64,000 bases of DNA from Chitinophagales bacterium (lineage in GTDB: Bacteria; Bacteroidota; Bacteroidia; Chitinophagales; Chitinophagaceae). The stretch is taken from NCBI GenBank assembly GCA_017303395.1, contig JAFLBN010000002.1:310001-374000 (forward strand). The letters are read 5' to 3'. Of the stretch, positions 56,583 through 63,034 are shown piece by piece (positions within the stretch are counted from its first letter, which is position 1; the number at the start of each line of letters is the position of its first letter). Both the position numbers and the translations under genes were made by a program. The notes below the pieces were generated by a model that searched no databases, was not told where the DNA came from, and was given only the letters and a program-made list of their open reading frames with translations.

Positions 56583-58052
56583 TTGAACAAAATCATATAC
56601 CGACTAAACCAACTCTTCGAAGGGAAAACCGCCATTATAGTAGCATTGTGTCTATTCGTATTACTGATATTATCATCGGGACTGAAATATGATTTGAACG
56701 AATGGGACGAATCTCGCTTGGGTTCGAATTGCTATGAAATGCATTTAAACCATGATTATATAAACCTTTACTATAACGGAAAGCCCGACACATGGATAGC
56801 TAAACCAGTGCTTCTTAACTGGTTAATATTAATTAGTTCTAATGTATTGGGGTTTAATGAATTATCACTAAGACTACCAACTTACTTAGCCACCATTGCA
56901 TTGGTTTATTTCTTAATGCGATTAATACAGCAATATGAAGGCACTAAAACAGCATTTATAACATCTCTCATACTACTAACATCAAAAACATTGTTGGGGT
57001 GGCACAGTGGGCTTACAGGAGATTATGATATGACATTAACGCTTTTCCTTACACTATCAATTTCAAGCTTTTTGCAATATATAGAAACAAAGAATCCTAA
57101 ACAGCTTTTCTTATTTGCTGTTTTTACAGGGCTTGCATTTTATACAAAAGGAACCGCTGCTTTTATTTTTATACCAGGTATAGCCGCATATCTGATAATA
57201 AAACGCAAATTTATTTTAGTAGTAAAGACACGGGAATTCTTAATTGCCAGCCTGATACTGTTGGTTTTTGTGCTTAGCTGGGTACTACTCCTTTTGATAT
57301 TGGGAAATCACTTCGACTCATCATTTTATGGAAGTAACAATGCAGTCAGCATACTATTCTTTGACGATACTTTCAGACGCATAACAGACAATAGCTTTCA
57401 GGATAAAACGGGCAATAATCCTTTTTTTGTTTTCGTTGCTATGGATGTGAGACTTAATCTGTGGAATTATATTTTCTACATCATACTGTTCGCGCTTACT
57501 GTTCGGTTATTAATAAACACAAAAAGCAAAACAGACAAAGCAAGTTCAACTACAAGCGAACTAATTGAACTATCATTCTGTATAACAATACCAGTATTTC
57601 TACTACTTAGCATTTCAAAAACGCAACATGACTGGTACCTAATACCATGTTTTGTATTTATAGCATACATTATAGCCCATTATATAGTAGTGGCATATGT
57701 AAAATACAGACCAATACTAATTGGTTTTACTCTGCTTACCTGCTTTACATTATCGAGACATGCGTATTATATATACTCACAACCAACAATAATACATAAG
57801 ACACTGAACAGAAATAATCCAGTGCTTAAAAATGCAAAACGCATTGTTTCTGTAGGCATGCCCAAACATCATATATTCCTTTATCTGCAGTGGATGCAAA
57901 TGAAAGTTATAACACTCCAGAATACCCAAACACTATCAGAACAAAAAGGCGAACTCCTATTATTGTGCAATGGCCAACTAAAAGACATACCCTTACAACA
58001 AATCCATATTATGCAAAGGTTTGATGAGTTTGTGATAGCCCGAATCAATTAA
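56583..58052 (+). CDS. GT39/ArnT-like membrane glycosyltransferase
   Basis: A polytopic membrane protein of 489 residues with about eleven helices. DLNEWDESRLGSN near residue 40 is the periplasmic acidic motif of lipid-phosphosugar transferases (PMT/ArnT superfamily), followed by KPVLLNWLILI and LSLRLPTYLATIAL. It would transfer a sugar from a polyprenyl phosphate donor to an acceptor outside the inner membrane. The start seems to be TTG at 56583 (MNKIIYRLNQLF), since no ATG is near. It converges on the btuB-like gene with an eight-base overlap. The acceptor is unknown. Confidence 0.82.
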   Translation: MNKIIYRLNQLFEGKTAIIVALCLFVLLILSSGLKYDLNEWDESRLGSNCYEMHLNHDYINLYYNGKPDTWIAKPVLLNWLILISSNVLGFNELSLRLPTYLATIALVYFLMRLIQQYEGTKTAFITSLILLTSKTLLGWHSGLTGDYDMTLTLFLTLSISSFLQYIETKNPKQLFLFAVFTGLAFYTKGTAAFIFIPGIAAYLIIKRKFILVVKTREFLIASLILLVFVLSWVLLLLILGNHFDSSFYGSNNAVSILFFDDTFRRITDNSFQDKTGNNPFFVFVAMDVRLNLWNYIFYIILFALTVRLLINTKSKTDKASSTTSELIELSFCITIPVFLLLSISKTQHDWYLIPCFVFIAYIIAHYIVVAYVKYRPILIGFTLLTCFTLSRHAYYIYSQPTIIHKTLNRNNPVLKNAKRIVSVGMPKHHIFLYLQWMQMKVITLQNTQTLSEQKGELLLLCNGQLKDIPLQQIHIMQRFDEFVIARIN

Positions 58053-59976
58053 TACTATACCTGATACCAACCAGCCAATTGATACCTGGCATTGGCCTGC
58101 CATTTACTACCTGATATTGTTTATTCCACACATTATTACACTGTGCTGTGCATTGAAGGTTATTACTACCTAAAGGTAGTGTATATAAGACCTGCACATT
58201 GCCCGTGTTATAAGGCATCAACCATTGCGATTCATCGACGGTTATGAAGCGATAACCGGTATAGGTATGATTGTAATTGAAGTATAGCTGCCTGAAATTA
58301 AACCCAATATTTATCTGACCATTGTAGCGGGGAGCATAAGGGATTTGCTTGCCTATACTGCCATCTCCTGATATATAGGATGAAACTGTTGTAGATAAAA
58401 CATAAGATGTATTTACGGCTAAGTGCAGGTTTAGCTTGCCAAAGCCGACAGTCAGTTTATTATCGGTCTCTACCCCACGGCTGTGCACAGTTGCTATGTT
58501 ATGTGGTGTCCAGATAGCGCCACCAAACCAGACTATCCAGTTGTCAATGACACGGTTAAAAACCGATAGCTCATGGTTCAACACTACTCTATTGGCAGAA
58601 TTGGAATGGAATACATAGCCCGCATCTGTACTCCACCCACTTTCAGGAAGCAGATTTCTGTTACCACCGGGGTTGTAGTACAATTCATTAAGCGTTGGCA
58701 CTCTATATGTTTTTTGAGCGTTTGCCTTTAAGGTCAACCAGCTTGTAATATCGTATGCAATATTACCTCCGGGCAATAAGTAGCTGTTATCGTCAACTGC
58801 TTCGCCCCTCAGATTTAATGCAACCTTCAGTTTACCGCTAGGGTTACTGTACAGGTAATTTGCGGCAAGTGCATACCTGTTTTGCGTATTTGTTTGGCTG
58901 ATGCTGGCACTATCTACCCATTGTACAGATATAGGTGCCATTATCATAATGCGATGGCGCGTACCAACTGCAAAACGCATAGCAGCCTCTGTATATAGTT
59001 GATTGCTTGCATTTTTTGTATTGAGTAATGCAAGTGTGTCCTGATAGCGCATGTAGTCTCTGATATAAGACAGCTTTACGGATGTGTGAACGGATTTGTC
59101 TGTTCTATTCCAATCTGCCAATAAGCGCAATGATTCATCGCGCTGATTTTTTACTGATTGAGATTCGAACAATGCGCGGGGTACTTCTCTGTAATATTGT
59201 TGATACCACCCTGTGAGAGATATAACATTCTTGCTATTTGCTTTATATGCCACTTGCAATAAACCGACGCCGCTGCTCAAAGAGGCATTACTCATGTTAC
59301 GTTTAATAGCGCCGTCTATGTAGCTGAAATTATTCTTTGCAGACTGTCCGAACCCGTTAACAGCCACGTACCATTTGCTTGTGCTGAATCCAGAACGCAG
59401 CCCCAATTGATATTGGCTGAAACTGCCTGCTACGGCATAAACTGAGTGATGAAATACATTACTGGTATCGAAGTATGGCTTTTCGTTTTCTACCACCAAT
59501 GCACCGCCAACATTGCCACTACCCCACATGGCGGAAGAGCTGCCGTACACAAGGTTTATCTTATTCATCAAAGCAACAGGCAGCAGGGAAACATCTGAAA
59601 TCCCCATTGCAGCATTTTGTAGTGGCACACCATTCCAATACACTTGCGACTGCGCAGCGGATGCACCGCGAAAGCTAAGTGTAGCCAAGCCATTGATACC
59701 ATATGTTTTGATAAATACAGGCGACTGTTGAGCGAGCATATTTGCCACGCTCTGAAACTGATATTGCCTGAGCGTAATGCTATCGATACTTGTTATTTTT
59801 TGCCCGGGAGCATAAGTGTTGATACGCTCATCATTTGATATCTGTAGCTTTTTCTTAGCCTTGACCTTAACATCTTTCAATGTATCTGCCAACTGCCCTT
59901 TGGACACAGAAAAAGAAAGTAACAATACAATCAGTATTGCTACTCCTTTGTTCACCGTGAAAGGGGACTTGCTCAT
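58045..59976 (-). CDS. btuB: BtuB-like TonB-dependent cobalamin receptor
   Basis: An outer-membrane TonB receptor of 643 residues with a signal peptide (MSKSPFTVNKGVAILIVLLLSFSVSKG). The plug has SVANMLAQQSPVFIKTYG, LATLSFRGASAAQSQVYWNGVPLQ and LVYGSSSAMWGSGNVGGALV. The barrel follows, with LNELYYNPGGN in its last third, typical of vitamin/siderophore receptors. It is assigned to B12 because it is the third gene of the operon starting with a cobalamin riboswitch and follows a BtuG-like gene by nine bases. The substrate is inferred from this context. Confidence 0.85.
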   Translation of the reverse strand: MSKSPFTVNKGVAILIVLLLSFSVSKGQLADTLKDVKVKAKKKLQISNDERINTYAPGQKITSIDSITLRQYQFQSVANMLAQQSPVFIKTYGINGLATLSFRGASAAQSQVYWNGVPLQNAAMGISDVSLLPVALMNKINLVYGSSSAMWGSGNVGGALVVENEKPYFDTSNVFHHSVYAVAGSFSQYQLGLRSGFSTSKWYVAVNGFGQSAKNNFSYIDGAIKRNMSNASLSSGVGLLQVAYKANSKNVISLTGWYQQYYREVPRALFESQSVKNQRDESLRLLADWNRTDKSVHTSVKLSYIRDYMRYQDTLALLNTKNASNQLYTEAAMRFAVGTRHRIMIMAPISVQWVDSASISQTNTQNRYALAANYLYSNPSGKLKVALNLRGEAVDDNSYLLPGGNIAYDITSWLTLKANAQKTYRVPTLNELYYNPGGNRNLLPESGWSTDAGYVFHSNSANRVVLNHELSVFNRVIDNWIVWFGGAIWTPHNIATVHSRGVETDNKLTVGFGKLNLHLAVNTSYVLSTTVSSYISGDGSIGKQIPYAPRYNGQINIGFNFRQLYFNYNHTYTGYRFITVDESQWLMPYNTGNVQVLYTLPLGSNNLQCTAQCNNVWNKQYQVVNGRPMPGINWLVGIRYSIN

Positions 59977-59985
59977 GTATTATCT

Positions 59986-61068
59986 TTATTCAAAATAAAA
60001 GCTGCCAGGACCTACGCCTACTGCAAAACTATTTACCTGATTACCTGCGGCATTATATACCGTTACAACACCTTTTTGTATAAAACCCTTCGGGTCTCCC
60101 ACATAAATATTGCCCGACTGTGGCTCTACACCTAATGCCCAAAAGTATTGAAACTTCTGCGCAGCAACGAATGGTGCTTTAGGCAACTGAGTATCATTGA
60201 TACTCATTCTATAGATACCGTTATTATCTGTCCCCCCATTGTAATCTACCTGTATGAAATACAACACATCTTTAGCAAGGTTGAATACGGGTTTTATAAC
60301 ATCTGACTTTGCAGAAAAGTAAAACGTCTTCATCACCTCGTCCTTACCATTCAGTTGGGTAATGGCTGCCTGCTTGCCTTTATATACATTGCCCGATACA
60401 ACCCAGAGATTACCATCTTTATCTACAGCCAGGCCATGTGGCGCTCTGTTATTGATGGCAATTGCATCCTGTACTTTGTCTGTAGCAATATCTACTGTAT
60501 AAATATTGCCACATGCAGTATCCCAGGTGCTGATGTAAGCTTTATTGTTCCGCATGACCATAAACTCGGGGTTCTGGTATGGCATATCTATCGTTCCGCT
60601 TACAGACATACTTTGCGGATTGATGATATAGACCTTATTGCTAAACAACGTAGATACATAAGCCTTAGTATCACTGACAGGCAATATATATCTTGGCTTA
60701 GGGATATTGATGATACCTATTTGTTTTCTTGTAGAATCAAGCACCAGCACTTTATCTGAATTGTTGATACACAGAAACCACTTATCGCCTATCCTGCGTA
60801 TGCTTTGAAACACGTCTCCAAGCTTTGAGCCTGTATTTACAGTCTCATAAATATTACCGTGATCTGTAGCTGTCTTATAGTTATATAAGTACAATGTACT
60901 GTTACCGTTGCCAAGACTCCCCTCGCAGACAGTATATACATTGCCTGAAGGTCCGGTAGTAGCTGGAGGCTTAGTATCAGGCTCTGTCGGCTTGTCTTTT
61001 ACACAAGCCGACAGTAGCGATACTACCAGTATACCCGATATTATATTTTGGAAATACGTTCTACCCAT
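59986..61068 (-). CDS. BtuG-like surface lipoprotein, beta-propeller
   Basis: A 360-residue lipoprotein (MGRTYFQNIISGILVVSLLSAC, lipobox LSAC; then VKDKPTEPD, an acidic/lysine tail as found in surface-exposed Bacteroidota lipoproteins). The mature part is a seven-bladed propeller of the DUF5074/YncE type (NVYTVCEGSLGNGNSTLYLY, RNNKAYISTWD, APHGLAVDKDGNLWVVSGN, GNIYVGDPK). In gut Bacteroides, BtuG binds cobalamin with very high affinity and caps BtuB. The riboswitch and the following btuB support the same role here. Its start overlaps the end of the upstream gene by 28 bases. Confidence 0.82.
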   Translation of the reverse strand: MGRTYFQNIISGILVVSLLSACVKDKPTEPDTKPPATTGPSGNVYTVCEGSLGNGNSTLYLYNYKTATDHGNIYETVNTGSKLGDVFQSIRRIGDKWFLCINNSDKVLVLDSTRKQIGIINIPKPRYILPVSDTKAYVSTLFSNKVYIINPQSMSVSGTIDMPYQNPEFMVMRNNKAYISTWDTACGNIYTVDIATDKVQDAIAINNRAPHGLAVDKDGNLWVVSGNVYKGKQAAITQLNGKDEVMKTFYFSAKSDVIKPVFNLAKDVLYFIQVDYNGGTDNNGIYRMSINDTQLPKAPFVAAQKFQYFWALGVEPQSGNIYVGDPKGFIQKGVVTVYNAAGNQVNSFAVGVGPGSFYFE

Positions 61069-62714
61069 TTGTTACCATTGGTATCTGTTACCACAAGGTA
61101 ATAAACCCCTGTAGTTAAAGATGCTACAGAAAGTTTGTTGTTAACCACAGCACCATACATTACCACACTACCCTTCATATCTGTTACAGTAGCATAAAGC
61201 TCGCCCTGTGGCGCTTTATTGAAAGCAATATTTATATCTGTTGCAGATGGATTAGGGAACACACTCATACTATTGCCCGACGCAATTGTTGTGTTCACAG
61301 AGCTTGCCCATCTCAGGTACATAGCGCCTACAGCTTCCAGATCGAAACCACCACTTACTACATTGGTAGGGTACGGGTCGTTGATTTTACGTCCGTTTTT
61401 GTCTGACTGACCATGAACGCCTATTGAACCGACAACATCCACCAATCGGATATGCGTAATATTATTGATGTCGAGGCCAGGTGTGCCAGCCAGCTCTTGC
61501 AAATCGAACGGTGTACCGAAGCCACCTATGTATTTACCTGCCAGATTATCTACCTGACGTGCATTTTCATACACACCGGAAGCTGGTGTTTGCAACGTAT
61601 CTGCAAAGCTGGTAGCAGGGAAACGTGTATAGTTTATGCCATCTGAACTTACCTCTACAAATGCATATTCCAGGAATGCCTCTTCAGGATTGTTAGGATT
61701 TGCGAACCCATTTTCAAACACTACAAAGTCAGGCCCGTTACCATTATAGATTATGTTATTGAATGTAAGTACTGCTGTACCACTGTCACCAAGGCTTACC
61801 AGGAAGTTATCAGGCATGCCGATTGCGTTGGTATCTGCGCCCAATGTTGGTTTGCCTAAAGATTTATCGGCAATATCCAACCAACCACGGTTCAGCTGGC
61901 AATGTGTTGCCCAACCTTTGATTGCAGGGTCGTTTTTGTTGATGGCAGTACTGCCTGAAACAGTAGCCTGTGGCGCAAAAGGGAATAAGTTTTCCTGTGT
62001 TATGAAATTGTCTATGCAGTAGTATGCGGGCGTATTCATACCAAACTGACCAACATCGCTGGAACTGAGCATTAAACTAAGGCTATCAACCTTACCAAGT
62101 GGCATCAGGTTTACCCATTTCCATGTTTTAAGGATATAGTCTTTTGAGTTATCTGAAAAACGGAAGTCTGCCAGATACACCTCAACGCTATCCTGTTTTT
62201 TAACACCGTTATGGTAACCGTAGATTACCATTTTGAACCAGTCCTGATCATTGCCTGTAGTACCACCAAACTTTTTGGCAAAGGCATCGCCATCGCGCAT
62301 ACTGTTGTAAGCGTATGTAGCATTCGTGATATAAAACCCAGCAGCAAAGCCACCCTTACCGGCATTAATCAGTTTTATATAATTGTCTGATCCGTTTGCA
62401 ACAATGTATTGATTAGAGCCGTTGTAGCCTTTCGCTGTTTTTGCAGAATATGAGTTGGTATAGCCACTTTTTACGCTATCCGTCATATTGGTATATGCAA
62501 AACCACTACTCCAAAAACCGCCCCATGCAGTATTATAAACGCAAGGGAAGTGAGCTAAACCATTGTCGAACCCAACATCGTTTCCTGAATTTGAGTAGTT
62601 GACATAAAACGTGTCTGTCTTTGGCAAAGTAAGGCCTTCAAAATCGGCCACAGTTTGGGCATTAGTTGCCATAGTAGCAACCATTGCCGAGATGAACAGT
62701 GTAAATCTGCGCAT
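61041..62714 (-). CDS. DUF4465-type secreted protein with T9SS sorting domain, B12 operon
   Basis: The first gene under the cobalamin riboswitch encodes a 557-residue secreted protein (MRRFTLFISAMVATMATNA). Residues 20-235 look like DUF4465 (TFYVNYSNSGNDVGFDNG, WGGFWSSGFAYTNMTDS, GSDNYIKLINAGKGGFA, KTWKWVNLMPLGKVDSL). A second domain, about residues 250-465, has FVVFENGFANPNNPEEAF and THIRLVDVVGSIGVHGQ. The C-terminus is a T9SS type A domain (SVFPNPSATDINIAF, VASLTTGVYYLVV, KWVERISKI). The position suggests a surface B12- or cobamide-binding or -scavenging protein; its function is not established. Confidence 0.82.
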   Translation of the reverse strand: MRRFTLFISAMVATMATNAQTVADFEGLTLPKTDTFYVNYSNSGNDVGFDNGLAHFPCVYNTAWGGFWSSGFAYTNMTDSVKSGYTNSYSAKTAKGYNGSNQYIVANGSDNYIKLINAGKGGFAAGFYITNATYAYNSMRDGDAFAKKFGGTTGNDQDWFKMVIYGYHNGVKKQDSVEVYLADFRFSDNSKDYILKTWKWVNLMPLGKVDSLSLMLSSSDVGQFGMNTPAYYCIDNFITQENLFPFAPQATVSGSTAINKNDPAIKGWATHCQLNRGWLDIADKSLGKPTLGADTNAIGMPDNFLVSLGDSGTAVLTFNNIIYNGNGPDFVVFENGFANPNNPEEAFLEYAFVEVSSDGINYTRFPATSFADTLQTPASGVYENARQVDNLAGKYIGGFGTPFDLQELAGTPGLDINNITHIRLVDVVGSIGVHGQSDKNGRKINDPYPTNVVSGGFDLEAVGAMYLRWASSVNTTIASGNSMSVFPNPSATDINIAFNKAPQGELYATVTDMKGSVVMYGAVVNNKLSVASLTTGVYYLVVTDTNGNKWVERISKI

Positions 62715-62849
62715 AATAAATTGATTAATACAATTTGTTTAATGCGGCTTGAGAGAAATTGGCAGATAACAATACAGCGATGGTTCCGGATCCATGCCCT
62801 GATTTTACCTGTGCTTTTATTCCCGAAAGCAGCGTAAATAAAAAATGTC

Positions 62850-63016
62850 CAAAGGCAGGTCTTCTGACTCGCTTCACTTTTTGCGGCCTTCCCATCACGC
62901 AGTAGCGTGACAGTGGCGTTGGCTGTGCAAAAAGCTGTAAAATGAAGCTTACAGCATCGGGTAATGTTCAGGATTTTCACCTGATTCCCTTTTAATTCCG
63001 TTGTTGAGCGGAAACC
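62850..63016 (-). ncRNA. Cobalamin riboswitch
   Basis: On the minus strand the order of conserved blocks is GGGAA, GGTGAAAATCC, GCTGT, GCCACTG, GGGAAGGC and GAGTCAGAAGACCTGCC, the B12-box. This is the standard layout of the AdoCbl/cobalamin riboswitch. It ends about 136 bases upstream of the DUF4465 gene, leaving room for an expression platform. It is the reason for assigning the operon to cobalamin. Confidence 0.93.
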
Positions 63017-63026
63017 AATGTTGTTG

Positions 63027-63034
63027 CAAATGTA
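63027..63034 (-). promoter_or_regulatory. -7 element of the B12 operon
   Basis: On the minus strand TACATTTG, then C, matches TAnnTTTG; transcription would start just ahead of the riboswitch. Confidence 0.6.

What the first reader, a model, noticed from the sequence alone, without database searches (positions are those of the whole stretch)
58045..63034. Cobalamin-riboswitch operon with a T9SS-secreted DUF4465 protein, BtuG-like propeller and BtuB
A cobalamin riboswitch with a -7 promoter element heads three genes. The last two (BtuG-like lipoprotein, BtuB-like receptor) match the known capture-and-import pair of gut Bacteroides. The first gene encodes a two-domain protein with a T9SS sorting signal, so it would be attached to the cell surface separately from BtuG. 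Its position as the first riboswitch-controlled gene suggests an extra extracellular B12 or cobamide binder or a scavenger of bound B12. I know of no characterised function for a DUF4465 protein with a T9SS tail in this role.
Basis: partly seen in the sequence, partly recalled or inferred. Interest (0 to 1): 0.72.

Follow-up and report, generated by a model that had tools for sequence, protein, structure and literature searches.

The report
Two-part secreted vitamin B12 catcher
A bacterium that seems to rely on outside vitamin B12 has, under a B12-sensing switch and next to its B12 import genes, a gene for a surface protein that joins two different known kinds of B12-holding domain and carries a type IX secretion tail.

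The parts
63027..63034 (-). Bacteroidota -7 promoter element TACATTTG (TAnnTTTG), at the 5' edge of the riboswitch match
   Evidence: direct reading; TAnnTTTG around that edge in 59 of 83 loci, about 5% in shuffles
62837..63034 (-). cobalamin riboswitch aptamer RF00174
   Evidence: 105.3 bits, E 2.6e-25
62715..62836 (-). leader between aptamer and first start codon
   Evidence: direct reading; no strong fold of its own, z -1.21
61041..62714 (-). J: T9SS-tailed DUF4465-D2 protein, 557 aa
62655..62714 (-). signal peptide of J, about res 1-20, no lipobox (read by eye, no predictor run)
   Evidence: direct reading
61998..62660 (-). D1: DUF4465/BtuJ domain, res 19-239; B12-contact equivalents W64 Y85 Y134 N227 T228 Y231
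   Evidence: Pfam; PDB; contacts from PMC12751083 mapped by eye on the alignment
61317..61988 (-). D2: BtuH-type domain, res 243-466; E334-N335-x-F337 stands where BtuH2 has N399-x-F401
61044..61262 (-). T9SS type A C-terminal sorting domain, res 485-557
   Evidence: PF18962 and TIGR04183
61041..61068 (-). 28-nt overlap of J and btuG-like reading frames
   Evidence: same exact overlap in 39 of 55 D2-BtuG pairs, start codons taken mechanically
59986..61068 (-). BtuG-like propeller lipoprotein (lipobox SLLSAC read by eye)
   Evidence: DUF5074 over cut-off; PDB chains 8p97 E 2.6e-37, 8blw_B E 9.4e-7
58045..59976 (-). BtuB-like TonB-dependent receptor
   Evidence: Pfam plug and barrel over cut-off; TIGR01779 E 1.9e-24 but below its cut-off

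Best explanation
J is a B12-starvation-induced surface capture protein that carries two different kinds of B12-binding-type domain in one chain: an N-terminal BtuJ (DUF4465) domain and a BtuH-type domain (D2). When B12 is plentiful the riboswitch shuts the operon. When it is scarce, J is made together with a BtuG-like lid and a BtuB-like TonB receptor, crosses the inner membrane by its signal peptide and the outer membrane by T9SS, and is held on the surface or on vesicles. The BtuJ domain catches cobamides; D2 binds them too or takes them over; BtuG/BtuB imports them. Shown here: riboswitch, gene order, domain make-up, predicted fold of D2, tails, recurrence, fused and split forms. Inferred: direction of the switch, binding by D1 and D2 of this protein, order of transfer, surface or vesicle location.
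Against: No binding data. Only two of eight published BtuH2 contact residues could be matched in D2. Foldseek alone gave no D2 match at E <= 0.001 (best 8blw_B 3e-3, TM 0.48 by query, rmsd 11.2), and a profile of close D2 relatives only (A3) found no BtuH chain. In the even phylum sample D2 occurs in 44 of 392 genomes and DUF4465 over cut-off in 9 of 392, both in only two; in one of these (G017) they are in separate loci without BtuG/BtuB hits nearby, and no riboswitch was found by the D2 there. Two further DUF4465 genomes (G158, G064) have a T9SS-tailed DUF4465 with riboswitch and BtuB-like gene but no BtuH-type hit in the locus. The 80-locus set was ranked by likeness to J, so its pairing rate is biased upward.
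Confidence: 0.77

Rival explanations
1. Only D1 binds B12. D2 is a galactose-binding-like module that does not bind cobamide and serves to hold J to surface glycan, to BtuG or as a spacer before the T9SS tail.
Against: BtuH chains stand above the CBMs (12.2 and 11.9 against 9.6 or less). D2 occurs without D1 in the locus beside cobalamin riboswitches (24 of 43 loci), BtuG-like (34 of 43) and BtuB-like (23 of 43) genes, so it seems to have a B12-linked job of its own.
Confidence: 0.17
2. J is a released decoy that hoards B12 against competitors and does not feed BtuG/BtuB.
For: T9SS cargo can be released or packed in vesicles (recalled; abstracts of PMC10202324 and PMC12704123 in the listing); BtuJ on B. 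thetaiotaomicron vesicles binds B12 (PMC12751083, passages).
Against: Same operon and riboswitch as the BtuG/BtuB-like genes, with an exact 28-nt overlap of D2 and btuG frames in 39 of 55 pairs; in B. thetaiotaomicron vesicle-borne BtuJ does deliver B12 to cells.
Confidence: 0.1
3. The operon serves another corrinoid or tetrapyrrole rather than B12 itself.
For: The BtuB-like receptor scores 86.2 bits with TIGR01779, far below its cut-off of 599.7.
Against: Cobalamin riboswitch, BtuG-like partner and DUF4465 contact residues point to cobamides.
Confidence: 0.05

Closest known systems
BtuJ1/BtuJ2 (DUF4465, IPR027828) of Bacteroides thetaiotaomicron
   Same: Domain family, fold and the six BtuJ1 B12-contact residues checked; B12-riboswitch locus with BtuG and BtuB
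   Different: BtuJ1 and BtuJ2 are lipoproteins without a D2 domain; J has a T9SS tail, no lipobox seen, and a second domain
BtuH2 (7biz) and the H domain of BtuG1 (8blw)
   Same: D2 fold (best structural matches) and the Asn-x-Phe at the nucleotide loop
   Different: D2 is shorter, six of eight contact residues not matched, not a lipoprotein, no PKD/Ig domains
BtuGH fusion BT_1490
   Same: Precedent for a BtuH domain fused to another B12 binder
   Different: There BtuH is fused to BtuG; here a BtuH-type domain is fused to BtuJ
DUF4465 survey proteins (PMC13398666, parts 1-4 of 5 read)
   Same: Eight distant members bind B12
   Different: That paper reports over 70% lipoproteins and the remainder with periplasmic signals; T9SS, type IX and sorting were not found in its main text

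Membership tests
DUF4465 / BtuJ | Pfam PF14717 over its cut-off | tested here: met
   170.9 bits, cut-off 25
DUF4465 / BtuJ | augmented jelly-roll fold of the B12-bound structures | tested here: met
   9hmu E 5e-17, TM by target 0.81
DUF4465 / BtuJ | B12-contact residues W78 Y97 Y146 N241 T242 Y245 of BtuJ1 | tested here: met
   identical in J (alignment; contacts named). Across 71 D1 rows: Y146 65, N241 66, T242 66, Y245 45 (24 F), W78 24 (27 F, 15 Y), Y97 25 (32 F)
DUF4465 / BtuJ | lipoprotein signal, as in BtuJ1 and BtuJ2 | tested here: not met
   no lipobox seen by eye; T9SS tail instead. Not family-defining (the survey has non-lipoprotein members), but a real difference
DUF4465 / BtuJ | B12 binding | not testable with these tools
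   needs protein
BtuH domain (D2) | sequence likeness to BtuH2 / BtuG1 H domain | tested here: met
   profile of 30 D2 proteins: 8blw E 4.9e-7, 7biz E 0.0035; hhalign 89-90% probability over 57-63 columns; but the window D2 alone and the narrow profile A3 found neither
BtuH domain (D2) | fold | tested here: met
BtuH domain (D2) | B12-contact residues Q333 N399 F401 H476 Y510 W511 W577 L578 | tested here: inconclusive
   N399 and F401 matched; the others lie outside the columns aligned by sequence
BtuH domain (D2) | B12 binding | not testable with these tools
   needs protein
T9SS type A cargo | Por_Secre_tail / TIGR04183 over cut-off | tested here: met
   37.0 bits (cut-off 27) and 32.7 bits (cut-off 23)
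T9SS type A cargo | T9SS machinery in the genome | tested here: met
   SprA_N E 2.9e-156; other components not searched
T9SS type A cargo | secretion and anchoring | not testable with these tools
   needs experiment
BtuG | PF16819 propeller and likeness to a solved BtuG | tested here: met
   63.5 bits, cut-off 27.2; 8blw_B (BtuG1) E 9.4e-7, and closer 8p97 E 2.6e-37, deposited as a putative surface layer protein
BtuB (TIGR01779 equivalog) | curated cut-off of 599.7 bits | tested here: not met
   86.2 bits, though its best NCBIfam family; called BtuB-like only
Cobalamin riboswitch RF00174 | gathering score | tested here: met
   105.3 against 31.5

The most novel reading that the evidence does not exclude
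J and the paired D1/D2 genes are a two-domain B12 relay or clamp: the BtuJ domain holds the cobamide with its nucleotide loop outward, the BtuH-type domain grips the opposite face, and the vitamin is passed between (or held by) the two before BtuG takes it, a bacterial counterpart of the two-domain wrap of the eukaryotic B12 carriers. Its export route was set independently by each phylum's sorting system, T9SS in Bacteroidota and PEP-CTERM in Planctomycetes/Verrucomicrobia.
Probability: 0.3. Interest if true: 0.78.

Novelty: new variant of a known kind. Interest (0 to 1): 0.62.

Why it matters
A BtuJ-to-BtuH hand-over has been proposed for B. thetaiotaomicron from the opposite faces by which the two hold B12 (PMC12751083, passage). 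A natural BtuJ-BtuH fusion, with adjacent-gene forms in the same genus, gives a single protein on which to test it. It also extends likely surface B12 capture from gut lipoproteins to T9SS-tailed proteins in records titled Chitinophagales/Chitinophagaceae, Flavobacteriales, Cytophagales and others, gives a likely function to a domain without a Pfam family found in 44 of 392 sampled Bacteroidota genomes, and suggests that surveys scoring only lipoprotein signals miss this class.

Tried and rejected
Single-sequence PDB search with D2 found no BtuH, and the narrow alignment A3 found none; the wider alignment A1 and the structure did. Foldseek for D2 gave no match at E <= 0.001. The window leader does not fold much better than shuffles (z -1.21, 28 of 200 as good), so no expression platform is claimed. 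D2 as a plain CBM32 is kept as a rival. Paper searches that paired T9SS or type IX with B12, BtuB, BtuG, BtuH or BtuJ (15 of 63 listed; 51: 15 of 50; 86: 7 of 7; 92: 8 of 276), DUF4465 alone (4 papers, 3 listed), BtuH with fusion (10 of 3,701), PEP-CTERM with cobalamin riboswitch (1 of 1) and DUF4465/BtuH/cobalamin (4 of 5) showed, in the rows listed, no title or abstract on T9SS- or PEP-CTERM-sorted DUF4465 or BtuH proteins; the lists are capped and cover open-access PMC papers only. Passages of PMC9723704 and PMC8620254 were also looked at and gave nothing on these proteins. Rows dropped: L109 and L111 (same records as G404 and G401) from the tree and the overlap count; L157 from the tree (short D2 match).

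Full report
What is there. On the minus strand a cobalamin riboswitch (62837-63034, 105.3 bits) is followed by three ORFs of 557, 360 and 643 aa. Pfam gives DUF4465 plus a T9SS C-terminal sorting domain in the first (J), a DUF5074 propeller in the second and TonB plug plus barrel in the third. The propeller matches 8blw_B, which is BtuG1 (E 9.4e-7), and more closely chains deposited as surface-layer or YncE proteins (8p97 E 2.6e-37). The receptor's best NCBIfam family is the TonB vitamin B12 receptor, but far below its cut-off (86.2 against 599.7 bits), so it is called BtuB-like.

DUF4465 is no longer unknown. PMC13398666 (parts 1-4 of 5 read) reports B12 binding by eight distant DUF4465 proteins and a B12-bound structure (9HMU); PMC12751083 (passages) names the B. 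thetaiotaomicron members BtuJ1 and BtuJ2 and reports that vesicles bearing them deliver B12. J matches these chains by sequence (9qpm E 3.1e-23) and by its model (9hmu E 5e-17). Reading the alignment against the contacts listed, J W64, Y85, Y134, N227, T228 and Y231 stand for BtuJ1 W78, Y97, Y146, N241, T242 and Y245: six of six identical. The same 2026 paper says over 70% of the family are lipoproteins and the remainder bear periplasmic signals; T9SS, type IX and sorting were not found in its main text.

Fused and split forms. Of 15 genomes of the window's genus, 9 have the fused J, 4 have two adjacent genes that cover the two halves, each with its own T9SS tail, and 2 have neither. All 13 with the gene(s) have the riboswitch upstream. 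Of the two without, one (G395) has its only riboswitch before what read like ribonucleotide reductase genes and the other (G398) has none at the threshold (no family search was run on the reductase). In a D2 tree the nine fused genus members form one group (SH-aLRT 93, not starred) among split neighbours, and the fused state needs 7 changes over the rows, at least 2 by starred branches alone (quick tree of 90 rows, 18 fused, 60 split, 12 without D1; root not inferred). Fusion in this genus is thus probably a later step, with loss of the first tail.

Wider recurrence. Of 80: 53 have adjacent D1 then D2 genes (gap -41 to 106 nt), 12 are fused, 3 have both apart, 12 have D2 only. A riboswitch somewhere in the locus is found in 72 of 80 (nhmmer at E 0.01, a model that recovered 36 of 36 of its own training loci; cmscan confirmed it in 8 of 8 loci tried), a BtuG-like gene in 61 and a BtuB-like gene in 55; contig ends cut some loci. 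T9SS tails were found in 53 of 53 D1 and 63 of 63 D2 proteins scanned at E 0.01; left out were 5 of 58 D1-only ORFs (three Planctomycete/Verrucomicrobial, two over 450 aa) and 5 of 68 D2-only ORFs (two Verrucomicrobial, three cut by contig ends). Of 9 Planctomycete, Verrucomicrobial and Lentisphaeral proteins scanned, 3 carry a PEP-CTERM motif over cut-off (L146 D1, both L155 proteins), three more below cut-off (L146 D2, L148 D1, L151) and three none.

Unbiased view, including results against. In the even sample DUF4465 is over cut-off in 9 of 392 genomes and D2 at E <= 0.001 in 44 of 392, together in two only, and in one of these (G017) in separate loci without BtuG/BtuB hits. In four further DUF4465 genomes (G238, G245, G320, G230; five loci) BtuH-like ORFs stand in the same locus; in G158 and G064 none was hit. 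Of the eight DUF4465 genomes other than the marginal G077, four have T9SS-tailed forms (G000, G158, G064, G017) and four lipoprotein-like forms (five ORFs; lipoboxes read by eye; J). For the 43 D2 loci outside the window genome, 24 have a riboswitch on the same strand within 7 kb upstream, 34 a BtuG-like and 23 a BtuB-like gene in the fetched stretch. With one or a few riboswitches in about 3 Mb, chance would give well under one of 43 (my estimate, not computed).

How it probably works. The genome has B12-dependent methionine synthase, lacks CbiC, one marker of corrin-ring synthesis, and has SprA of the T9SS: it probably depends on imported cobamide and can export T9SS cargo. Under B12 shortage the riboswitch lets the operon be made. 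J is exported and anchored by T9SS; its BtuJ domain catches cobamide, D2 binds or takes over, and the BtuG/BtuB pair imports. An exact 28-nt overlap between the D2 (or J) frame and btuG in 39 of 55 pairs (start codons taken mechanically) suggests coupled translation. PMC12751083 proposes BtuJ-to-BtuH transfer because the two grip opposite faces; J would be a covalent form of that pair. PMC13398666 notes that eukaryotic carriers wrap B12 between two domains, the basis of the clamp reading. Transfer, clamp and location are inferences.

Novelty. The DUF4465 function is known; the BtuH fold is known; a BtuH-BtuG fusion is known (PMC10404256, passages). The BtuJ-BtuH fusion or pair, the T9SS and PEP-CTERM tails, and the assignment of D2 to the BtuH fold were not seen in the rows listed by the paper searches made, which are capped and cover open-access PMC papers only.

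Noticed in passing
61041-61068 and L097-L188: Exact 28-nt overlap of the D2/J and btuG-like frames in 39 of 55 pairs, a hint of translational coupling.
   Followed up: partly
L189 (G395), L190 (G405): A cobalamin riboswitch directly before what read like class I ribonucleotide reductase genes in two genus members; in G395 it is the only one found, and that genome lacks J.
   Followed up: partly
L048 and L049, about 2.7-6.8 kb: Three tandem BtuH/BtuK-like lipoprotein ORFs, all three hit by the iterated D2 profile, suggesting that BtuK may belong to the same superfamily (the BtuK name is from gene order and size, not from a search).
   Followed up: partly
L113 7983-10259, L157 5003-8218: Tandem DUF4465-DUF4465-D2 proteins; L137 has two DUF4465 genes before D2.
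   Followed up: no
L155 7797-9536: Planctomycete protein with two PEP-CTERM motifs, one after each domain, as if two sorted proteins had been joined.
   Followed up: partly
L062, L064, L066, L069, L070, L078, L089: Two BtuG-like propeller genes in one D2 locus; in three of the seven (L062, L064, L066) one of them has a T9SS-type tail. L073 and L077 have a single long tailed one.
   Followed up: no
   Followed up: no
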